Shown one piece after another: positions 44,391 through 63,085 of a DNA stretch of 64,000 bases. The notes under the pieces are model-generated. The model saw nothing but the letters and a program-made list of their open reading frames with translations, was not told where the DNA came from and did not search any database. This stretch comes from Rhabdaerophilum calidifontis. GTDB lineage: Bacteria; Pseudomonadota; Alphaproteobacteria; Rhizobiales; Beijerinckiaceae. The position numbers were made by a program, and so were the translations under genes. The stretch's first letter is position 1; each line of letters starts with the position of its first letter. The stretch spans positions 12,501 to 76,500 of the forward strand of contig NZ_VTRS01000009.1 in assembly GCF_008641065.1 (NCBI RefSeq), read 5' to 3'.

Positions 44391-44771
44391 TCAGTCGAAA
44401 ACTCGCCCCGGCTGTTCGTCCCACGGCAGGGACGCCACGAAGCACAGATCATAGATGCTGATCGTCGAGGGCTCGCGGTGGATGACGAGTCGCTCGAGCA
44501 CCTCGGGCGCCAGCCATGCGAGGCGCAGGAGGCGGCTGACGTAGCGGTCGGAGAGGCCCTCGTCGGCGGCCAGATCGGCGAGCGTGGCGACGTCGCCGCG
44601 TTCCAGCCGCTGCCGCCAGCCCCATGCGCGGCCGATGGCGCGCAAGAGGTGGGGATCTTGTCCGCGGTTCATGGCGGCCTCGACGTGCTTCGGCGGAAGG
44701 ATCCGGGGACGACCACCGCGACGGCGGAGTTCGAGCGGGATGTGGACGCGCAGGGTGTCGGGCGCGGGCAT
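44391..44771 (-). CDS. Recombinase-linked HTH protein (ParB-like motif)
   Basis: 126 residues. Basic N terminus, then a ParB/Korb-like helix-turn-helix in ATLADLAADEGLSDRYVSRL. The start overlaps the recombinase stop (TGATG), so it is translated with it. Small proteins of this kind accompany large serine recombinases in alphaproteobacterial prophages; a directionality or DNA-binding accessory role is inferred. Confidence 0.7.
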   Translation of the reverse strand: MPAPDTLRVHIPLELRRRGGRPRILPPKHVEAAMNRGQDPHLLRAIGRAWGWRQRLERGDVATLADLAADEGLSDRYVSRLLRLAWLAPEVLERLVIHREPSTISIYDLCFVASLPWDEQPGRVFD

Positions 44772-46093
44772 CAGGCCACCTCCTTCTTCGGCGGGGCCAT
44801 CAGCGCAGCGATGGCGCCGAGGCCGTCGTGGCGCAGGTCGATGGCGAGCCCCGCCTCGCTGACCGTGATGCGCGCGACCAGCAGCTGGACGATGCGCGAC
44901 TGCTCGGCCGGGATGAGCGCCTTCCACAGGTCGTCGAACTGCGCCAGCGCGGCGACAACGGTGGTCTCATCGAGATCGGGGCGGTCCTTCCGCACCGCTC
45001 GCGCGGTGCGCGCCGCCACCTCCGGCGTGCGCAGCATCCGGCGGATTTCGCCGATGACTGCCTCCTCGACCATGGCACCCGGCAGCCGCTGCGGCCCCCG
45101 TAGCTCAGCCGCCGGGCGTTTCCGGATCACGTCCATGGACGTGTAGTAGCAGTAGCGCTTGCCCTTCCGCTTGGTGTGGTGCGGCGTCATGGCCGCACCC
45201 GTCTCGGTGAAGATCAGTCCGCGCAGGAGTGCCGGTTGGGCCGTTCGCGCCACCGCCGCCCGTGCGACGCGGTTGTTGGCGATGACCGCGTGGACCTCGT
45301 CCCACAGCTTCTGGTCGATGATCGCCTTGTGCTCGCCCGGATAGACCTCGTCCTTATGCACGGCGAGGCCGAGATAGACCTTGTTGTGCAGGAACTTCAG
45401 CAGGTAGCCCCGGTCGAACACCGCGCCGCGCTTGGTGCGGATCCCGCGGGCGTGCAACTCCTTCAGCACCTGCGCGGTGGAACTGGAGCGGGCATAGAGG
45501 CGGAAGATCGTGCGGACCTGTTCCGCCTCGGCGGGCTCGATGACGAGCTTGCGGTCCTTCACGACATAGCCGAGCGGCACCGGCCCGCCCATCCACATCC
45601 CCTTGCGTCGGGAGGCGGCGAACTTGTCGCGGATCCGCTCGCCGATCACCTCGCGCTCGAACTGGGCGAAGCTGAGCAGGATGTTCAGCGTCAGGCGGCC
45701 CATGGACGTGGTGGTGTTGAAAGACTGCGTGACCGAGACGAAGGTCACGCCGTGGCGGTCGAAGATCTCCACCAGCTTCGAGAAGTCCATGAGCGCGCGG
45801 CTGAGGCGGTCGATCTTGTAGACCACGACCACGTCGATCAGCCCGGCCTCAATGTCGGCGATCAGCTGTGCCAGCGCGGGGCGATCCAGCGTGCCGCCCG
45901 AGAAGCCGCCATCGTCATAGCGGTCGCGCAGCGCCACCCAACCCTCGGCACGCTGTGAGGCGATGTAGGCCTCGCAGGCCTCGCGCTGGGCGTCGAGGCT
46001 GTTGAACTCCATGTCGAGTCCTTCCTCGCTCGACTTGCGGGTGTAGATGGCGCAGCGCAGGCGGCGGACGGCTTCGGGCTTGGTGCGGCTCAT
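44771..46093 (-). CDS. Large serine recombinase (integrase candidate)
   Basis: 440 residues. Resolvase N-terminal domain with catalytic Ser near residue 21 in IYTRKSSEEG, then YKIDRLSRALMDF and the ERIRDKFAASRRKGMWMGG hinge; Recombinase domain (GYVVKDRKLVIEPAEAEQVR, LHNKVYLGLAVHK). The zinc-ribbon cysteines of some relatives are absent (only RYCYYTS). Start 46093 overlaps the DUF2924 stop by four bases. It probably integrates and excises this element. Confidence 0.92.
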   Translation of the reverse strand: MSRTKPEAVRRLRCAIYTRKSSEEGLDMEFNSLDAQREACEAYIASQRAEGWVALRDRYDDGGFSGGTLDRPALAQLIADIEAGLIDVVVVYKIDRLSRALMDFSKLVEIFDRHGVTFVSVTQSFNTTTSMGRLTLNILLSFAQFEREVIGERIRDKFAASRRKGMWMGGPVPLGYVVKDRKLVIEPAEAEQVRTIFRLYARSSSTAQVLKELHARGIRTKRGAVFDRGYLLKFLHNKVYLGLAVHKDEVYPGEHKAIIDQKLWDEVHAVIANNRVARAAVARTAQPALLRGLIFTETGAAMTPHHTKRKGKRYCYYTSMDVIRKRPAAELRGPQRLPGAMVEEAVIGEIRRMLRTPEVAARTARAVRKDRPDLDETTVVAALAQFDDLWKALIPAEQSRIVQLLVARITVSEAGLAIDLRHDGLGAIAALMAPPKKEVA

Positions 46094-46590
46094 GGGCGCG
46101 CCTCCGCACCATGGGCGAGCCCGAAGAACTTCCACCCGTTCCAGTGACTGCCGGTGATCGCGCGCACGGCGGCCGAGAGCGACTTGAAGCGGCGCCCCTG
46201 CCATTCGTATCCGTCGGTCAGCACCGTGACGATCTGCTCCTCACCCTGCCATTCGCGCACGAGCTTGGTGCCGGGGATCGGCCGACGGGGATCCGCGATC
46301 AACGGGCCCGAGGTGCCCGTGGCGACCTCGGCCGCCAGCGCGTCGAGCGTCCGCCGCGTCGCGGGCTTGATCCCGCCATGGGCCAGTTCCTGGATGCGGT
46401 AGCCGATCCGCAGCTCCAGATTCCCGCGGCTGGCGTTCGGTGCGGGTTCCCCGAACATGACCCGCCACCTGGCCTGCAGCTCCGGCACCGTCATGGCCTT
46501 CAGCGCCGCCAGCTCGGTCAGGACGTCGATCCCCTCCGCCTGGCGCGCGAGCGCGGCCTTTGCTGCTGATTTTCTTGTGTTTTTCCTCAT
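46090..46590 (-). CDS. DUF2924 protein
   Basis: 166 residues. Family core seen: LAALKAMTVPELQARWRVMFG, LELRIGYRIQELAHGG, PGTKLVREWQGEEQIVTVL and FKSLSAAVRAITGSHWNGWKFFGL, the last resembling a DNA-binding or RAMA-type domain. The gene is nearly always upstream of a serine recombinase in prophages, as here, and may assist recombination. Translationally coupled on both sides. Confidence 0.88.
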   Translation of the reverse strand: MRKNTRKSAAKAALARQAEGIDVLTELAALKAMTVPELQARWRVMFGEPAPNASRGNLELRIGYRIQELAHGGIKPATRRTLDALAAEVATGTSGPLIADPRRPIPGTKLVREWQGEEQIVTVLTDGYEWQGRRFKSLSAAVRAITGSHWNGWKFFGLAHGAEARP

Positions 46591-55448: not shown

Positions 55449-56206
55449 TGCTGGACTTCAACAAGCGCCCCGGTATCGCCGAGCGCATCAATGCGGCCGT
55501 GGATGCCGCGCTCGAAGCCGAGCGCGCGGCGACGCAACCGCGCGATTACCTCGGCGCGTCCCGGCTGGGCCATGCCTGCGAGCGCGCGCTGCAGTTCGAG
55601 TTTGCAGGCGCGCCGAAGGACGAGGGCCAGGACTTCTCCGGCCGGTCGCTCCGGATATTCGCGATCGGGCATGAGCTCGAAGATCTCGCCATCCGCTGGC
55701 TGCGGGCGGCGGGGCTCGATCTGGTGACCCAAAAGCGCGACGGCGGCCAGTTCGGGTTCTCCGTCGCAGGCGGGCGCATCCGCGGTCATGTCGACGGGAT
55801 CGTCGCCGAGGCCACAGCGGCGCTTGGACTGCGCACCCCCGCGCTCTGGGAGTGCAAGACGATGAACGCGAAGAACTGGCGCGAGACGGTGGCCAAGGGC
55901 GTGACCGTCGCGAAGCCGGTCTATGCCGCGCAGATTGCGCTCTACCAGGCCTACATGGAAGCGACGGTGCCGGGCATCAGTGCGAACCCCGCGCTCTTCA
56001 CCGCGATAAACAAGGACACGGCCGAACTGCACCACGAGCAGGTCGCCTTCAATGCCGATCTCGCGCAGCGAATGTCGGATCGCGGCGTCCGGATCCTGCG
56101 GGCGACCGACGCGGGCGAGCTGCTCCCGCGCATTGCCGCCAATCGCGACTTCTTCGAATGCCGGTTCTGCCCGTGGGCCGAGCGCTGTTGGGGTCTGCCG
56201 GCATGA
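55448..56206 (+). CDS. PD-(D/E)XK exonuclease with Cas4-like iron-sulfur cysteines
   Basis: 252 residues. Nuclease motif D116 in GHVDGIV and E135-x-K137 in WECKT, with an upstream His in GHELEDL. Four cysteines sit as in Cas4 and AddB nucleases: C44 in GHACERAL, then C238-x2-C241-x5-C247 at the C terminus, a likely [4Fe-4S] site. It probably resects DNA ends for the Sak4-like annealing ATPase. Coupled to both neighbours. Confidence 0.85.
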   Translation: MLDFNKRPGIAERINAAVDAALEAERAATQPRDYLGASRLGHACERALQFEFAGAPKDEGQDFSGRSLRIFAIGHELEDLAIRWLRAAGLDLVTQKRDGGQFGFSVAGGRIRGHVDGIVAEATAALGLRTPALWECKTMNAKNWRETVAKGVTVAKPVYAAQIALYQAYMEATVPGISANPALFTAINKDTAELHHEQVAFNADLAQRMSDRGVRILRATDAGELLPRIAANRDFFECRFCPWAERCWGLPA

Positions 56207-58494
56207 GCGACGACAACATCATCCACTTCAATCCCTGGCGGGACTTCAACGACGCAGCACCCCTCGCCGATCCCTTCGCGGTCGAACCGGACGCGGGCCA
56301 GATCGCGCGCTTCGTCGATGTGGTCTTTGGCTATTCCGACGGGCTGATCCCGGTTCGCGGTTTCGTCGACAAGGGTCAGGGCAAGGACGGCCGGCCGCAC
56401 AACATCTGGATCGACGCGGACGCCACCGCGCCCGAGAAGCTCGGCACCTTCGCGGGATGGGCCGCGCGTGAGGGCGCGGCGGTCTATGTCATCCCCGGCA
56501 CGGTGGCGGAGACGGGTCAGGCCCGCGCCGCGGACGTCCATCAGATGCAGAGCCTCGTGGTCGATCTCGACTCGGGCGACATCCCTGCCAAGCTCGATCA
56601 TCTCGTTCACCACCTCGGGCGACCGACGCTCACCGTCGAGAGCGGCGGGCGCACGCCCGAGGGCGCGACCAAGCTGCATGTCTGGTGGAAGCTGACAGAG
56701 CCCGTCGAGGGGGCGGACCTTGCCCGGCTCTGCCAGCTGCGCGGCGAGATCGCGCTGAAGGTTGGTGGCGACACGCATTTCCGCTCGGCCCACCAGCCGA
56801 TCCGCGTGCCCGGCACCGTCTATCACAAGGGCGGGCTCACGCGCCTCGTGCAGATCCGCGAGGCGGCCGCTCTAGAGGTCGATCTCGCCGAGATGACCGA
56901 GCGCGTCGCCGACATGCCGCCCATGCCCGGCGTCGGCATGGCCACGGCCGAGCTCCGCGAGAAACCCGGCATTGACGACGTGCTGGTGACCCCGGTGCAC
57001 GAGGGCGGCACGGACGACTGGTCCCGTTTCGAGGGGGCTTCGGCCGCCATCGGCTATTTCCTGCGGCTGGTCCACGAGGGCCGGATGTCGATGGACGAGG
57101 GCTGGACGGCGATCTGCGGCTACAACGCCGCGATGCTGCGCCCCGCCTGGCCGCTCGACCGGCTGAAGCGCGAGACGAACCGGCTGTGGGAGCTGCACAT
57201 CAAGCGGCACGGGCCGCCGCTGATCCGCCTCGACGGCGCGGCCCCAGCGCAGACCGAGCTGCCGACCTTCACGCTGGGCGCGCTTCTGGACGACATAAGC
57301 CCGATGCCCGACGACATCATCGGCCCGCGAGTGCTGACGCCGGGCGGGCTCTTGGTGCTGGGCGGCGCGCCCAAGGTGGGCAAGAGCGACCTGCTGATCG
57401 CATTGCTGGTGCACATGGCGGCGGGCGTGCCCTTCCTCGGCTTCTCCCCGCCACGACCGCTGCGGATCTTCTACCTGCAGGCAGAGATCCAGTATCACTA
57501 CCTGCGCGAGCGCATGCAGCAGATCGGCCTGCCACCCGAGCTGATCGCGGCCGCGCGCGACAACCTGATTGTCACGCCGAAATTGCGCATGCTGCTCGAT
57601 GCCGAGGGCAGCGCCCGCGTGGCCGAGGCGATCAAGGCCGCGTTCCCAGATGTCTCGCTCGACATCCTGTGCATCGATCCGATCCGCAACCTCTTCGATG
57701 GCGGCCCGGACGGCGGCGGCGAAAACGACAACGCCGCGATGATGTTCTTCCTCAAGGACCGGGTCGAGGTGCTGCGCGACCACGTCAACCCGGACTGCGG
57801 CGTGATCCTCGTCCACCACACCAAGAAGCTCTCGAAGCACCAGGTGAAGGAGGACCCGTTCCTCGCCCTTTCCGGCGCCAGCGCGCTCCGGGGCTTCTAC
57901 ACCACCGGCCTGATCCTGCACCGGCCAGAGGAGGACTCGACCCAGCGCCGCCTCGAGATCGAGCTGCGCAACGGCCCGGCGCTGCCTACGAAGCTGGTGG
58001 ACAAGGTCAAGGGCACATGGGTCGAGATCAACCCGATGAGCGAGCGGCTCGTGCGCCCCGAGGTCGGCGCGAAGCATGACGCCGAGCGCGATCGCAAGCG
58101 GGACGTGATCCTCTCGATCCTGCTCGAGGAGGCGGCCGAGGGGCGGCTCTACACCATCAACCAGTTCGCCGAGGCCTTCGAGAACAAGGGCGGTCTGGGC
58201 GGCAAGGACACGATCCGCGACCGGATCGCCGTTCAAGCCACCAAGGGGGCGATCAAGTTCATCCGCGACGGCGCCCCCTACGGGCTTGGGCCTTCGCGGT
58301 CGCGCTTCGGATACCTCTGCGTCGAGGGGATGGTCATGCCCACGGACGGCGAGGATGTCGATCCGGCGACCGGCGAGGTCACCCCCGCCAGCATCGCAGT
58401 GCTGCCCACCCATTACAAATCGCCGCAGACCGGGGCGCTGCTCGAGGTCGAGAACCCTCAGGTCTGGGTCTATCCGGAGGGGGAACGGCCATGA
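56203..58494 (+). CDS. Phage primase-helicase (RepA/AAA_25-like)
   Basis: 763 residues. N-terminal archaeo-eukaryotic-type primase region with acidic metal motif LVVDLDSGDIP, TVESGGRTPEGATKLHVWW and HQPIRVPGTVYHKGG. Then a RecA/DnaB-like ATPase: Walker A GGAPKVGKSD near residue 390, strand ILCIDPIRNLF and VILVHHTKK. A C-terminal winged region follows (about 630-700). Its 3' end is followed by an iteron cluster, which suggests the origin it acts on. Start overlaps the nuclease stop by ATGA. Confidence 0.88.
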   Translation: MSDDNIIHFNPWRDFNDAAPLADPFAVEPDAGQIARFVDVVFGYSDGLIPVRGFVDKGQGKDGRPHNIWIDADATAPEKLGTFAGWAAREGAAVYVIPGTVAETGQARAADVHQMQSLVVDLDSGDIPAKLDHLVHHLGRPTLTVESGGRTPEGATKLHVWWKLTEPVEGADLARLCQLRGEIALKVGGDTHFRSAHQPIRVPGTVYHKGGLTRLVQIREAAALEVDLAEMTERVADMPPMPGVGMATAELREKPGIDDVLVTPVHEGGTDDWSRFEGASAAIGYFLRLVHEGRMSMDEGWTAICGYNAAMLRPAWPLDRLKRETNRLWELHIKRHGPPLIRLDGAAPAQTELPTFTLGALLDDISPMPDDIIGPRVLTPGGLLVLGGAPKVGKSDLLIALLVHMAAGVPFLGFSPPRPLRIFYLQAEIQYHYLRERMQQIGLPPELIAAARDNLIVTPKLRMLLDAEGSARVAEAIKAAFPDVSLDILCIDPIRNLFDGGPDGGGENDNAAMMFFLKDRVEVLRDHVNPDCGVILVHHTKKLSKHQVKEDPFLALSGASALRGFYTTGLILHRPEEDSTQRRLEIELRNGPALPTKLVDKVKGTWVEINPMSERLVRPEVGAKHDAERDRKRDVILSILLEEAAEGRLYTINQFAEAFENKGGLGGKDTIRDRIAVQATKGAIKFIRDGAPYGLGPSRSRFGYLCVEGMVMPTDGEDVDPATGEVTPASIAVLPTHYKSPQTGALLEVENPQVWVYPEGERP

Positions 58495-58560
58495 TCACCC
58501 CCGCAGATCGCTTCGCGCAGAATTGCGCGCGGGCCAGTTTGAACCAGATGCGGAGCCTTT

Positions 58561-58768
58561 CCGAAACTGCCCCGCCACCCTCACGCAGAAGCGCGCATGC
58601 GTCCGACTTGGCCAGTTTCGGCCCGCTTCCGAAACTGCCCCCGCAGGATTGCGCGGATGCCGCAACCGCTACGCTGCACCCAGTTTCGGGCGAGTCAGTC
58701 GAAAGCACCCTCCCGAAACTGGAATTCCCATTTCTTGTCAGCGTGTTGATGCGGTTTTCCAGTTTCGG
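58561..58768. repeat. Iteron-like cluster: six CAGTTTCGG copies in alternating orientation
   Basis: Copies at 58561-58569 (minus), 58613-58621 (plus), 58629-58637 (minus), 58681-58689 (plus), 58713-58721 (minus) and 58760-58768 (plus). Start spacings are 52, 16, 52, 32 and 47 bases. Copies two and three form a perfect 9-bp inverted repeat with a 7-base spacer. A decayed seventh copy (CCAGTTTGA) is at 58534. Lies in the 467-base gap right after the primase-helicase gene; a replication origin is the best reading. Confidence 0.75.
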
Positions 58769-58776
58769 GGGTGAAA

Positions 58777-58822
58777 CCACCCCCTACGGGGGTGGGGGAG
58801 AACGCCGCAGGCGGGTTCTCCC
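58777..58822. other. Two adjacent hairpins beside the iterons
   Basis: CCACCCCC-TAC-GGGGGTGG (58777-58795) is directly followed by GGGAGAAC-N11-GTTCTCCC (58796-58822). Both stems are perfect 8-mers. They may belong to the origin or end the primase transcript. The rest of the gap, 58823-58961, shows only the ribosome-binding site of the next gene. Confidence 0.6.
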
Positions 58823-58961
58823 ACGCCCACCCCCAGGGGTTTCGCGCGCGTGGCTCGTCCCCGCCCAAACCTCCCGATCCGACGACGGCGGCCCCGTACC
58901 GCCAAGCACCAGACCGCCGTCGTCTTCCACCCGAGCAGCCAACCAGAAGAGGAGACCACCC

Positions 58962-59498
58962 ATGGCTGACATGACTCTCGCTACACACCGCCGCGAGGCA
59001 ATCCCCGTTCTGCCGCCCGTCGTCCGGGCCAACCGGGCGATGCTGGCGCTCGACCTCGGCACCACGACGGGATGGGCGCTGCACGGCATCGACGGGCTGA
59101 TCACCTCCGGCACCGTGTCGTTCCGGCCCGGCCGCTTCGACGGTGGCGGCATGCGGTATCTCCGCTTCACCAACTGGCTGACCGAGATCGACCGCCTGTC
59201 TGGGCCCGTCGCCGCCATCTGGTTCGAGGAGGTCCGCCGCCACGCGGCCACCGACGCGGCCCATGTCTATGGTGGGCTGATGGCCACGCTGACCGCATGG
59301 GCCGAACTGCGCGGCATTCCCTACGAGGGCGTCCCGGTCGGCACGATCAAGCGCCACGCCACCGGCAAGGGCAACGCGCCCAAGGAGGCGATGATCGCCG
59401 CGGCCCGGGCGCGCGGCTTCAGCCCCGCCGACGACAACGAGGCCGACGCCATCGCGATCCTGCTCTGGGCGCTGGAGACCCAAGGGGGCCTCCAATGA
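58962..59498 (+). CDS. RuvC-like Holliday junction resolvase
   Basis: 178 residues with the RNase H fold of RuvC: first Asp D31 in LALDLGTTTGWAL, Glu E90/E91 in IWFEEVRRH, and the C-terminal acidic group D158/D159 and D163 in ADDNEADAIAILLWAL. AGGAG precedes ATG 58962. Would resolve recombination or replication intermediates of the element. The stop overlaps the next start (ATGA). Confidence 0.88.
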   Translation: MADMTLATHRREAIPVLPPVVRANRAMLALDLGTTTGWALHGIDGLITSGTVSFRPGRFDGGGMRYLRFTNWLTEIDRLSGPVAAIWFEEVRRHAATDAAHVYGGLMATLTAWAELRGIPYEGVPVGTIKRHATGKGNAPKEAMIAAARARGFSPADDNEADAIAILLWALETQGGLQ

Positions 59499-60561: not shown

Positions 60562-61902
60562 ATGACGCTGAGCTTCGCCCCGGACGCGATCGAGACGTGG
60601 CCGCTGGCCAAGCTCCAGCCCTACGCGAAGAACGCGAAGGCGCACGGGCCGGACCAGGTCGCCAAGATCGCCGCCAGCATGGCCGAGTTCGGTTGGACCG
60701 TGCCCTGCCTCGTGGCAGAGGATGGCGAGTTGATTGCGGGACATGGCCGGGTGCTGGCGGCGACGCAGTTGGGGTTGATAGAAGCGCCGGTGATCGTGCT
60801 GGGCCATCTGACCGAGGCGCAGCGCCGGGCGTACCGCATCGCCGACAACAAGCTGACGGAACTCGGCACCTGGGACGAGGCGCTGCTGTCGGCGGAACTG
60901 AACGACCTGCTGGCGGAGGATTTCGACCTGTCGCTGGTCGGCTTCTCCGACAGCGAGTTGGACAAGTTGCTGGCCTTCGTGCCGGAGGGGGACGGTGAAG
61001 AAGGTGGCGCCGGGGGCTCAGTGCCGCCGGTGACTATCCCCGAACCCCCGCGCAATCCGGCCTCGCGGACCGGCGATCTCTGGATCCTCGGCGACCACCG
61101 GCTGCTGTGTGGTGACAGCACCAGTGCTACCGATGTGCGCCGCCTGATGAATGGCGAGCGGGCGATCCTGTTCGCGACCGACCCGCCGTATCTCGTGGAC
61201 TACGACGGATCGAACCATCCGACCCGGAACAAGGACTGGTCGGCCTCCTATGGCACGACCTGGGACGACAGTTCGCAGGGGGCCGAGCTTTACGACGGCT
61301 TCATTTCTGCCGCCGTGGCGGAAGCCATCACCGAAAACGCCGCCTGGTATTGCTGGCACGCGTCTCGCCGTCAGGCGATGCTGGAAGCCTGCTGGGAAAA
61401 GGCCGGTGCCTTCGTCCATCAGCAGATCATCTGGGTGAAGGACCGCGGCGTTCTGACCCGGTCGCATTACCTCTGGAAGCACGAGCCCTGCTTCATGGGC
61501 TGGCGGCGGCCGAACCGCCCGCCGAAGATGGCCGAAGAAACCCTGCCGTCAACATGGGCGCTCCCCAGCTTCGCCAAGGACGAGCGCCCCGACCACCCGA
61601 CGCCGAAACCGCTGGACGCCTTCGGGATCCCGATGCGCCAGCATGTGGCACGGGGTGGCCTCTGCTATGAGCCTTTCTCGGGGTCCGGGTCGCAGATCAT
61701 GGCGGGCGAAGCCAACGGCCGCCGCGTGTTCGCGATGGAAATCAGCCCGGCGTACATCGACGTCGCCGTCGAACGTTGGCAGGCGGACACAGGGCGCAAC
61801 GCAATCCTCGACGGCGACGGTCGGACCTTTGCACAGGTGAAAACGGAGAGGCTGGGGGATGCCCCGGCCGCGCCCGAAATCCAACCCGAAGCTGCTGCGT
61901 GA
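60562..61902 (+). CDS. ParB-domain DNA adenine/cytosine-N4 methyltransferase
   Basis: 446 residues. N-terminal ParB/Srx-type domain (about 10-100: LQPYAKNAKAHGPDQVAKIA, ELIAGHGRVLAATQL), then an amino-methyltransferase of the beta class: motif IV TDPPYLVDY near residue 206 comes before motif I EPFSGSGSQIMAGE near 370. Such ParB-MTase fusions are common in phages and modify DNA to avoid restriction. Target specificity is unknown. The C5 methyltransferase gene overlaps its last 44 bases. Confidence 0.9.
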   Translation: MTLSFAPDAIETWPLAKLQPYAKNAKAHGPDQVAKIAASMAEFGWTVPCLVAEDGELIAGHGRVLAATQLGLIEAPVIVLGHLTEAQRRAYRIADNKLTELGTWDEALLSAELNDLLAEDFDLSLVGFSDSELDKLLAFVPEGDGEEGGAGGSVPPVTIPEPPRNPASRTGDLWILGDHRLLCGDSTSATDVRRLMNGERAILFATDPPYLVDYDGSNHPTRNKDWSASYGTTWDDSSQGAELYDGFISAAVAEAITENAAWYCWHASRRQAMLEACWEKAGAFVHQQIIWVKDRGVLTRSHYLWKHEPCFMGWRRPNRPPKMAEETLPSTWALPSFAKDERPDHPTPKPLDAFGIPMRQHVARGGLCYEPFSGSGSQIMAGEANGRRVFAMEISPAYIDVAVERWQADTGRNAILDGDGRTFAQVKTERLGDAPAAPEIQPEAAA

Positions 61903-63085
61903 AATGCATGACCTGGCTTTACATCCCTCCGGACGAGATTCCGGAACCGGAGACGCATGCCTCTTTGGCCTCTCCCTCTGCTCCGGCGCGGGCGGTCTTG
62001 ATCTCGGGCTCACCATCGCCATCCCTAGATATCGTGCTGTGGGCCATGTCGAACGGGAAACCTTCGCCGCAGCCACTCTCGTGGCGCGGATGGAAGACGC
62101 GTCCCTGGATCAGGCTGTTGTCTGGGACGACGTTGCCACCTTTGACGGCCGCCCGTGGCGCGGCGCGGTGGACATCGTCACTGCGGGCTATCCGTGCCAG
62201 CCGTTCTCGGTCGCGGGCCGACGGCTCGGTGCCGAGGATCCACGCCACCTCTGGCCCCATGTCGCCCGCATCATCGGCGAGGTCGAACCGCCCTTCGTCT
62301 TCCTCGAGAATGTCGCCCATCATCTCCGCCTCGGATTCCCCGAAGTCGCCGCAGGACTGGTCGGCATGGGCTACCGCCTTGCGGCAGGCCTCTTCACGGC
62401 GGCGGAAGTCGGCGCGCCCCACCGACGCGAGCGGCTCTTCATACTCGCCATTCGCGAAAACGACGAGTTGGCCGACCCCGCGCGCCTGCTCTGGCGTCCG
62501 GTCGAGTGGCGGGAATCGGACGGAGATTCTGCGGCTCTGGCCGACGCCGAGGGCCAGCGCCAACGAGAACCGGCAGACGAAGCCGACGCCGTCGCAGGAG
62601 GCGGGTCAGCGTGGGATGAACCTCGCGACGACGGCGGCGCTGTGGCCGACGCCCCAGACCGACAGCTTCCGCAGCAGGGGGGGCGAGCGGAAGGACGAAA
62701 AGGGTCTGGACCGGATGGCGCGGGACTGGCCGACGCCGATGGCGAACGACGGCTGCAAGCCGAGCGCGGGCAACCGGCGGACAGCCGACCTGACCCATGC
62801 GGCGGGGATGTGGATGACGCCGACGGCCCGCGATCACAAGGATGGGGCGACGAGCCTTGCGAACACCCCGGTGAACGGCCTGCTTGGCCGCCAGGTCCTG
62901 GTGACGCCGATGGCTGGGAGCGATACCTCCGAGCCGCGCCGGACCTTGAACCCGCTGTTCGTCGAGGCGCTGATGGGTTGGCCCACCGGGTGGACCGGCT
63001 TCGCCTCTGTGGCAACGGCGTGGTTCCGCTGGTTGCGGCGCATGCGCTGCGAACTCTGGCGGCTGAACTGCTGGCCGATGGATGA
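61859..63085 (+). CDS. C5-cytosine DNA methyltransferase
   Basis: 408 residues. Motif I LSLCSGAGGLDLGL, IV GYPCQPFSVAGRR with the catalytic Cys, VI FVFLENVAHH, VIII GAPHRRERLFILA, and motif X LCGNGVVPLVAAHALRTL at the C terminus. GAGG lies upstream of ATG 61859; a second ATG at 61904 is possible. The stretch between VIII and X (about 200-370) is repetitive and Asp/Gly-rich (ALADAEGQ, GLADADGE, VDDADGP) and has weak codon bias in this frame; see the overlapping frame at 61908-63098. Confidence 0.85.
   Translation: MPRPRPKSNPKLLREMHDLALHPSGRDSGTGDACLFGLSLCSGAGGLDLGLTIAIPRYRAVGHVERETFAAATLVARMEDASLDQAVVWDDVATFDGRPWRGAVDIVTAGYPCQPFSVAGRRLGAEDPRHLWPHVARIIGEVEPPFVFLENVAHHLRLGFPEVAAGLVGMGYRLAAGLFTAAEVGAPHRRERLFILAIRENDELADPARLLWRPVEWRESDGDSAALADAEGQRQREPADEADAVAGGGSAWDEPRDDGGAVADAPDRQLPQQGGRAEGRKGSGPDGAGLADADGERRLQAERGQPADSRPDPCGGDVDDADGPRSQGWGDEPCEHPGERPAWPPGPGDADGWERYLRAAPDLEPAVRRGADGLAHRVDRLRLCGNGVVPLVAAHALRTLAAELLADG

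What the first reader, a model, noticed from the sequence alone, without database searches (positions are those of the whole stretch)
58495..58961. Iteron cluster with alternating orientation after the primase-helicase gene: probable replication origin
Six exact copies of the 9-mer CAGTTTCGG lie within 208 bases, strictly alternating in orientation, with start spacings 52, 16, 52, 32 and 47. The 52-16-52 symmetry and the perfect inverted pair at 58613-58637 point to a bound dimer. Two perfect hairpins follow directly. The block fills the only large gap in an otherwise coupled operon and comes right after the primase-helicase. Iterons at origins are known for plasmids and phages; this motif is not one I recognise.
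Basis: partly seen in the sequence, partly recalled or inferred. Interest (0 to 1): 0.8.

Follow-up and report, generated by a model that had tools for sequence, protein, structure and literature searches.

The report
Swappable prophage replication-origin cassette with iterons
Behind the replication gene of this prophage lies a cluster of short repeats that looks like its replication start site; in related prophages the repeats have other letters, and they change together with the DNA-reading tip of the replication protein, which suggests that this tip is what recognises them.

Summary
Six exact CAGTTTCGG copies alternate in orientation as described (0.47 expected per window) and are not dense elsewhere in the 3.09 Mb genome (32 in all).

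174 loci with the Rep C-terminus were collected (the window's own locus counted twice); 161 have a RuvC-like gene next on the same strand. The gap tends to hold a mixed-orientation repeat array whose motif differs by lineage; I sorted it into 11 classes. Class is only weakly linked to Rep residues 1-600 and to RuvC (AUC 0.51-0.61) but strongly to the C-terminal winged-helix domain (AUC 0.95; 0.99 with the 50 of 66 strongly labelled loci). IHF-like sites (clear in relatives, degenerate here) and tandem hairpins share the gap. A large subgroup (47 of 172 gaps) has degenerate arrays.

Best reading: this is the origin. The Rep winged helix binds the iterons, its RecA-type ATPase opens the DNA, its primase domain primes; winged helix and array move together as an exchangeable specificity cassette. 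Binding and origin activity are untested. The kind is known (P4 alpha, RSF1010, lambda O); I found no description of this variant.

The parts
56203..58494 (+). Rep: primase-helicase, 763 aa: AEP-like primase domain (about residues 30-240), RecA-type ATPase (about 358-600), C-terminal winged helix (about 619-706)
   Evidence: Pfam AAA_25 only; PHROG 239 primase/helicase over 378-759, best hit PHROG 13004 of unknown function; AlphaFold model and Foldseek hits 6zp9 (PrimPol AEP), 3h20 (RSF1010 RepB'), DnaB/RadA/Rad51
58057..58320 (+). codons of the C-terminal winged helix (Rep 619-706), inferred reader of the iterons
   Evidence: AUC with motif class 0.92-0.95 for windows 631-750, 0.989 for 640-704 with strong labels; helices 619-645, 652-658, 668-681 and loop 688-703 in the model
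58535..58553 (+). two degenerate iterons (CAGTTTGAA, CAGATGCGG)
   Evidence: second position occupied in 16 of 20 class-A representatives
58561..58569 (-). iteron 1 CAGTTTCGG
58613..58621 (+). iteron 2 CAGTTTCGG
58629..58637 (-). iteron 3 CAGTTTCGG
58681..58689 (+). iteron 4 CAGTTTCGG
58713..58721 (-). iteron 5 CAGTTTCGG
58736..58748 (+). degenerate IHF-like site TGTCAGCGTGTTG (2 mismatches to WATCAANNNNTTR, consensus recalled) between iterons 5 and 6
   Evidence: read; the same position (244) holds a match with 0-1 mismatch in 7 of 20 class-A representatives
58760..58768 (+). iteron 6 CAGTTTCGG
   Evidence: position matched in 6 of 20 class-A representatives
58777..58834 (+). tandem hairpin block: X (58777-58784), X' (58788-58795), hairpin 58796-58822, X again (58827-58834); X' can pair with either X
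   Evidence: blocks of four sequence types found by pattern in 56 of 66 representatives
58881..58924 (.). perfect 11-bp inverted repeat GACGACGGCGG/CCGCCGTCGTC, very similar in several loci of other motif classes; possible right border of the exchanged cassette
   Evidence: relatives seen; not counted
58962..59498 (+). RuvC-like Holliday junction resolvase
   Evidence: PHROG 159 E 2e-30, no Pfam match; same-strand downstream neighbour in 161 of 174 loci; in the other 13 only 12 to 663 bases are held downstream

Best explanation
The gap at 58495-58961 is the replication origin of a tailed-phage prophage. Several copies of the Rep protein (AEP-type primase, RecA-type ATPase and winged helix in one chain) bind the iterons through the C-terminal winged helix. 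IHF or a relative bends the DNA between iterons 5 and 6. The helicase part then opens the duplex beside the array, and the tandem hairpins, exposed as single strand, may serve as primer start sites for the primase part. Winged helix plus array form an exchangeable specificity cassette, so related prophages differ in which origin their Rep can use. Shown by computation: the array, its fixed layout within class A, its strong link to the winged helix and weak link to the rest of Rep and to RuvC, and IHF-consensus enrichment across relatives. Inferred: binding, origin activity, order of steps, role of IHF and of the hairpins.
For: Array far above chance. In 37 of 46 gap clusters the best repeated word of the cluster's representative beat all 40 shuffles; in two of the 37 the word belongs to the hairpins. 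Layout: 19 of 20 class-A representatives have 69-, 121+, 137-, 189+; in 6 of 6 class-B ones the plus copies repeat at 68 bp with another motif. Identity of Rep 661-720 predicts motif class with AUC 0.951, against 0.51-0.61 for windows ending at or before residue 630 and 0.565 for RuvC (over 58 loci Rep 661-720 scores 0.946, label permutations at most 0.564 in 200). Least number of class changes on trees of 66 loci: 11 on the C-terminus (10 is the minimum), 33 on Rep 1-580 (shuffles 41.4); on 58 loci 29 for RuvC (shuffles 36.3). With the 50 strongly labelled loci AUC is 0.989 for residues 640-704. Not mere proximity in one group: among 24 loci sharing one hairpin type (classes H-K), 640-704 scores 0.971, the codons nearer to the array (704-763) 0.840, the hairpin block on the other side 0.612. 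10 of the 15 most informative positions of 601-763 lie at the start of helix 2, the recognition helix or the wing (2.7 expected, model). Natural exchange: L052 and L147 are 99.7% identical over Rep 1-580 and diverge just before the wing, with different arrays. IHF consensus exact in 29 of 66 gaps, 31 sites against a mean of 0.5 in shuffles. Primase and RecA folds in one chain.
Against: No binding or replication data. GC skew shows no clear turning point. Rep 1-580 and RuvC are not wholly unlinked: their class changes (33 and 29) are below every one of 200 shuffles (least 36 and 30). The window's own IHF-like site has two mismatches, and 10 of 20 class-A representatives have no match within one mismatch. 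47 of 172 gaps (clusters L115, L166, L180, L104; the second prophage of this genome, L021, among them) have degenerate arrays with no exact repeat above shuffles, and 59 of 172 gaps lie in clusters that fail that test; the H labels of that subgroup rest on one or two matches. Among A/B loci of one hairpin type the codons nearer to the array score higher than the winged helix (0.954 against 0.916) and the hairpin block reaches 0.772, so linkage is not excluded there. The C-terminal model finds no significant solved relative (best E 0.17, Fur). I defined the motif classes from the de novo list and by reading gaps, and chose the contact elements after seeing the informative positions.
Confidence: 0.81

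Rival explanations
1. The array is an operator: the Rep winged helix binds it to control transcription of RuvC and the genes behind it, or to limit Rep activity, and replication starts elsewhere.
For: Iterons of plasmids often have a control role too (general knowledge). The array lies before RuvC in 161 of 174 loci.
Against: IHF-consensus sites at recurrent positions, tandem hairpins and the primase and helicase domains in the same protein fit an origin better. The array lies behind, not before, the rep gene. No other origin candidate was searched for in the rest of the prophage, so this is argument, not exclusion.
Confidence: 0.1
2. Pure linkage: array and C-terminus travel together only because they are neighbours, and the array is read by another protein or by none.
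For: Array and winged-helix codons are near each other; hairpin type goes with the broad motif group; in A/B loci the nearer codons score higher than the winged helix; Rep 1-580 and RuvC keep a weak link with class.
Against: RuvC, about as close on the other side, is only weakly linked (AUC 0.565). In the H-K group the farther winged helix scores higher than the nearer codons (0.971 against 0.840). Class is almost perfectly nested in the C-terminal tree (11 changes, minimum 10). Informative residues cluster on DNA-contacting elements.
Confidence: 0.07
3. The alternating copies act as stems in single-stranded DNA or RNA (ssi-like or attenuator-like), not as double-strand protein sites.
For: Alternation makes neighbouring copies foldable (in class A 80 of 89 neighbouring pairs beyond position 60 are opposite); the hairpin block folds better than shuffles (z -2.7 as DNA and as RNA). 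In class A the strands differ: position 4 is A in 29 of 68 plus copies and in 2 of 61 minus copies, both of the latter from L093, which a symmetric double-strand site does not explain.
Against: In several class-A loci plus copies such as CAGATTGGG do not pair perfectly with minus copies such as CAGTTTCGG, so perfect stems are not maintained. Class-B locus L007 has four direct copies 9-12 bp apart before the first inverted one. No Rfam family matches at gathering score and only a chance-level one at E up to 1.
Confidence: 0.05

Closest known systems
AEP primases fused to a RepA/DnaB-type helicase and a C-terminal winged helix (PrimQH and all3500 families; PMC5862659, part 1 of section 12 and passages seen)
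   Same: Domain order primase, RecA-type helicase, winged helix; carried by integrated elements including prophages; the authors suggest that the winged helix might recognise the origin
   Different: The term 'iteron' does not occur in its main text and the parts seen describe no origin; the link of winged helix and array is what is added here. Membership in either family was not tested
Phage P4 alpha protein and its origin (as described in PMC4234260, section 18 part 1)
   Same: One chain with primase, helicase and a winged helix that binds repeats at the origin
   Different: P4 alpha has a bacterial Toprim-type primase; here the primase fold is AEP and the ATPase RecA-like
RSF1010 RepA/RepB'/RepC with iterons and ssi stem-loops (PMC4234260, section 18 part 1)
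   Same: Iterons, helicase, RepB'-like primase fold (3h20), hairpins beside the iterons
   Different: Three separate proteins there, one chain here
pRN1 / Bordetella phage BIP-1 type (PMC4234260: abstract, section 14, section 18 part 1)
   Same: AEP primase, helicase and C-terminal winged helix; required element directly 3' of the rep gene
   Different: SF3 helicase; a stem-loop and not iterons is proposed as origin; no specific binding of the pRN1 protein was found
Lambda O protein and ori (PMC7466680 and PMC5043065, passages)
   Same: Phage origin with iterons bound by a phage initiator
   Different: The origin lies inside the O gene; that O works through P and the host helicase is recalled
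PLE RepA (PMC7145576, passages)
   Same: Satellite-coded initiator that binds its own iterons
   Different: RepA_N-type initiator, another protein family

Membership tests
Iteron-type replication origin | Several copies of a short motif in a compact non-coding stretch, above chance | tested here: met
   in relatives 37 of 46 clusters
Iteron-type replication origin | Motif specific for the cognate initiator | tested here: inconclusive
   covariation with the Rep winged helix is strong (AUC 0.95-0.99), but binding was not tested
Iteron-type replication origin | A+T-rich unwinding region | not tested
   no melting analysis; no A+T-rich tract stands out by eye
Iteron-type replication origin | Site for a DNA-bending protein such as IHF | tested here: inconclusive
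   in relatives 29 of 66 exact matches (consensus recalled); the window's own site has 2 mismatches. Two HU/IHF-family genes in the own genome, not typed further
Iteron-type replication origin | DnaA boxes | not tested
   not scanned
Iteron-type replication origin | Autonomous replication | not testable with these tools
   needs a plasmid or marker-frequency experiment
AEP primase with RecA-type helicase and winged helix | AEP fold with DxD motif | tested here: met
   6zp9 E 1e-9 and 3h20 E 3e-8; D121 and D123 in 66 of 66
AEP primase with RecA-type helicase and winged helix | RecA-type ATPase with Walker A | tested here: met
   AAA_25; G387-S395 invariant except A389 in 65 of 66; DnaB/RadA/Rad51 hits
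AEP primase with RecA-type helicase and winged helix | C-terminal winged helix | tested here: inconclusive
   order of helices and strands in the model fits; Foldseek hits include many winged-helix regulators, none significant
RSF1010 (IncQ) origin | Separate RepC protein that binds the iterons | tested here: inconclusive
   no RepC-like domain among the ten proteins scanned with Pfam; no dedicated search for RepC was made
Rfam RNA family | Covariance-model match in the gap | tested here: not met
   0 matches at gathering score in 6 loci; one sub-threshold miRNA match in the window stretch

The most novel reading that the evidence does not exclude
Prophages of alphaproteobacteria carry an exchangeable origin-specificity cassette: the last about 130 codons of a one-chain primase-helicase initiator plus the array behind it recombine as a unit between otherwise weakly associated Rep and RuvC alleles. 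This gives about 11 origin specificities and a natural data set from which the winged-helix-to-DNA code can be read. The same layout 3' of rep extends to Wolbachia phage WO and to a betaproteobacterial replicon, and would define compatibility groups among co-resident prophages.
Probability: 0.45. Interest if true: 0.78.

Novelty: new variant of a known kind. Interest (0 to 1): 0.66.

Why it matters
PMC5862659 left it as a suggestion that the C-terminal winged helix of such AEP-helicase fusions recognises the origin, and for the pRN1 protein no specific binding was found (PMC4234260). Here nature has made the exchange many times: the motif follows the winged helix strongly and the other parts tested only weakly. 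This points to the probable origin in roughly 110 of 172 gaps (those in clusters whose representative beats shuffles with a non-hairpin word), offers about 11 initiator-iteron pairs for a direct binding test, and suggests where to look for the origin of Wolbachia phage WO.

Tried and rejected
DNA search of the gap in the phage collection: no match. Rfam: nothing at gathering score, one sub-threshold match. GC skew as origin evidence: too weak. PDB sequence profiles: one implausible hit (FabG, E 0.007) and none. Two automatic searches for the triple-hairpin block were poorly specified and often picked iteron pairs; replaced by simple patterns that miss 10 of 66 loci, so no covariation statistics are claimed for the hairpins. 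Incompatibility: in 7 of 10 genomes with two loci, a list I drew up by eye, the classes differ (two of the seven rest on weak H labels), no more than the about 8 of 10 expected from class frequencies (my arithmetic), so no evidence for exclusion. One Wolbachia record (L202) showed no repeat above shuffles in the stretch examined; another (L203) was fetched but not tested. Of five relatives with the same primase domain, three show a word above shuffles at one or more word lengths and two (L196, L198) do not. L093 was labelled A through a tie, but its de novo word is that of class F; the label was kept, with a relabelled version shown beside it, and the locus is left out of the 50 strong labels. 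The shuffle test takes the best of four word lengths without correction.

Papers: ten searches were made., aimed at this system, listed nothing whose title or abstract start describes it; only the listings were seen. In the Paracoccus virome paper PMC6536676 passages were seen: 'iteron', 'primase' and 'RuvC' do not occur in its main text. Subscription journals and preprints are not held. No search was made for the literature on the phage WO origin.

Full report
Observation. The six CAGTTTCGG copies, their orientation and their spacings are as described, and no other copy lies in the window. The whole genome holds 32 copies in 3.09 Mb. The stretch lies between a 763-residue Rep (56203-58494) and a RuvC-like resolvase (58962-59498; PHROG 159). 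An open frame runs through the gap in phase with RuvC (58491-59498), but its part in the gap has no Pfam match, and by arithmetic the plus copies at 58613 and 58681 fall in different phases of it, so I treat the gap as non-coding.

Element. Behind the window the contig carries terminase, portal, head-protease and tape-measure genes (L190), and IMG/VR holds the element as a 44.9 kb viral contig (L106, 100% Rep identity). The same genome has a second prophage with such genes on another contig, with Rep 72% identical (L021 and L193).

Relatives. Rep matched in 20 of 199 related genomes at E 0.001, several of them over the ATPase only, and in 11 of 397 family genomes at E 1e-100; both counts include the own genome. 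Of 189 loci then held, 174 have the Rep C-terminus (149 distinct by the first 200 nt after it; the own locus twice) and 161 have a RuvC-like match downstream on the same strand, 259 to 844 nt from the stop; the other 13 have only 12 to 663 bases held there. By their record titles the hosts are mostly Rhodobacteraceae-type genera, with Stappia, Pannonibacter, Roseibium, Aquibium, Chelativorans, Erythrobacter and others.

Array. 172 gaps with enough sequence fell into 46 clusters; in 37 the best word of the cluster's representative beat all 40 shuffles (in two of these it belongs to the hairpins). The words differ, for example AGTTTCGG, AGTTGGGAA, AAGTTGCC, CAGAATCC, CAGATTCC, CAGATTTC, AAATTTG, AACTCCT, AGGACGA, ATGACAAAG, ATGAGGAAG. 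The nine clusters that fail hold 59 gaps; 47 of these are the subgroup with TGACTCATATG-like stops, whose repeats are degenerate. Positions are stiff in class A: 69-, 121+, 137- and 189+ in 19 of 20 representatives, 53+ in 16, 220 or 221- in 18, 268+ in 6; in class B the plus copies repeat at 68 bp in 6 of 6 with another word.

Who reads it. Loci were labelled by counts of class motifs in the first 290 nt (two pairs of motifs merged). For 66 representatives (95% identity or different class) identity in sliding windows of Rep was asked to predict 'same class'. Windows ending at or before residue 630 give AUC 0.51-0.61; 601-660 gives 0.83, 631-690 0.92, 661-720 0.95, 691-750 0.94. RuvC gives 0.565 (58 loci). 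On trees the class changes at least 11 times on the C-terminus (10 is the minimum), 33 times on residues 1-580 (shuffles 41.4, least 36) and, for 58 loci, 29 times on RuvC (shuffles 36.3, least 30). So Rep 1-580 and RuvC keep a weak association with class, far below that of the C-terminus. With 16 weakly labelled loci left out, residues 640-704 give 0.989, RuvC 0.552 (44 loci) and residues 1-620 0.52-0.57. Among 24 loci sharing one hairpin type (H-K) the winged helix (0.971) beats the codons nearer to the array (0.840) and the hairpin block on the far side (0.612); among 23 A/B loci the nearer codons do better (0.954 against 0.916) and the hairpin block reaches 0.772. Proximity thus does not explain the H-K group, and is not excluded by the A/B group.

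Structure. The C-terminal model (mean pLDDT 82) shows a long helix 619-645, a short helix 652-658, a recognition-type helix 668-681 and a loop 688-703 between strands. Ten of the 15 most informative positions of 601-763 (698, 693, 653, 669, 652, 697, 696, 701, 668, 692) lie at these contact elements, 2.7 expected; the elements were named after a first look at the positions, so the p-value of 1e-5 is not blind. Foldseek with this model gives only weak hits, many of them winged-helix regulators (best E 0.17). The full model is reliable domain by domain only (mean pLDDT 75.6, pTM 0.39); its best hits are an AEP PrimPol (6zp9), RSF1010 RepB' (3h20) and RecA/DnaB-type ATPases.

Natural exchange. 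L052 and L147 are 99.7% identical over Rep 1-580 and part ways just before the wing, with arrays of class A and B; the label of L052 is a weak one that rests on matches with up to one mismatch at the class-A positions. L030 and L033 (A and K) show both flanks alike and the cassette replaced: Rep 1-580 96%, C-terminus 57%, RuvC 97%.

Other origin features. The IHF consensus WATCAANNNNTTR (recalled, not from a call) occurs exactly in 29 of 66 gaps, 31 sites against 0.5 in shuffles, with none in a coding control (66 loci) and a downstream control (59 loci); with one mismatch allowed 52 of 66, 77 sites against 8.9, controls 1 and 2. Positions recur by class: 36 and 115 in H, 81 in I, 60 in J and K, 244 in 7 of 20 of A. 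Ten of 20 class-A representatives have no match within one mismatch, and the window's own site has two. Behind the array lies a block X, X', hairpin, X in which X' can pair either way; patterns of four types find it in 56 of 66 representatives. As single strand the window's block folds better than shuffles, z -2.7. A role as primer start is a guess by analogy with the ssi stem-loops of RSF1010.

Mechanism and comparison. P4 alpha and RSF1010 show the two halves of the proposed scheme, as described in PMC4234260 (section 18, part 1): a winged helix that binds origin repeats in a one-chain primase-helicase, and a RepB'-type primase acting at stem-loops after iteron binding. PMC5862659 describes the domain order seen here and suggests that the winged helix might recognise the origin. 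I add the array, its layout, the many motifs and the covariation, and rate it a new variant of a known kind.

Reach. A tblastn search found homologues of Rep 352-756 in Wolbachia phage WO. In the wVitA record AGTTGGCA occurs 5 times in mixed orientation directly 3' of that gene (at most 4 in 100 shuffles; at 7 and 10 letters the count only equals the shuffle maximum), with an exact IHF-consensus match between copies. A betaproteobacterial replicon (Eleftheria terrae, L200) has AGCCAACTG 3 times (at most 2), a hairpin with TAC loop and, by eye, a RuvC-like start. These are leads with modest statistics.

Noticed in passing
L201 5384-5564 (Wolbachia phage WO, KX522565): AGTTGGCA five times in mixed orientation directly 3' of the RepA-like ATPase gene, with an exact IHF-consensus match AATCAATAGCTTA between copies: candidate origin of phage WO; modest statistics, and record L202 showed nothing.
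   Followed up: partly
L199 7-111 (Bordetella phage BIP-1, AY526909, about 26.61-26.71 kb): AACGAGGCAA four times as two 9-bp-spaced pairs in inverted arrangement, 467-571 nt 3' of the rep stop (at most 2 in 100 shuffles; at 7 letters the count equals the shuffle maximum); PMC4234260 proposed a stem-loop at the rep stop as origin.
   Followed up: partly
L194, L195, L197: Relatives matching Rep only over the primase domain (helicase type not tested) carry 9-bp-spaced repeats 3' of rep with locus-specific letters (GTGGCGG, TGTGACGGAT, ATGACGG); L196 and L198 do not.
   Followed up: partly
L200 3770-4082 (Eleftheria terrae replicon): Similar arrangement in a betaproteobacterium: AGCCAACTG copies, tandem hairpins with TAC loop, then by eye a RuvC-like start.
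   Followed up: partly
class-A loci, first 300 nt of the gap: Strand asymmetry of iterons: position 4 is A in 29 of 68 plus-strand copies but in 2 of 61 minus-strand copies, both from the mislabelled L093. Unexplained.
   Followed up: no
58881-58924 and similar stretches in L021, L055, L159, L163: GACGACGGCGG...CCGCCGTCGTC element before RuvC looks nearly the same in loci whose arrays and hairpins differ; may be the right recombination border of the cassette.
   Followed up: no
L131, L147, L159 gaps (844, 830, 705 nt): In some relatives extra sequence, by eye a small coding frame, sits between the hairpin block and RuvC.
   Followed up: no
G000 contigs C1, C6, C15, C17, positions 95-104: Four contigs begin with a minus-strand CAGTTTCGG at nearly the same position: perhaps one repeated element that broke the assembly.
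   Followed up: no
44771-46204 (-): Frame that reads like a large serine recombinase, near the left end of the prophage (by eye).
   Followed up: no
60562-61902 and 61859-63085: Two DNA methyltransferase genes downstream of RuvC: one with a ParB-like N-terminal part and an N6/N4 methylase domain, one C5 methylase.
   Followed up: no
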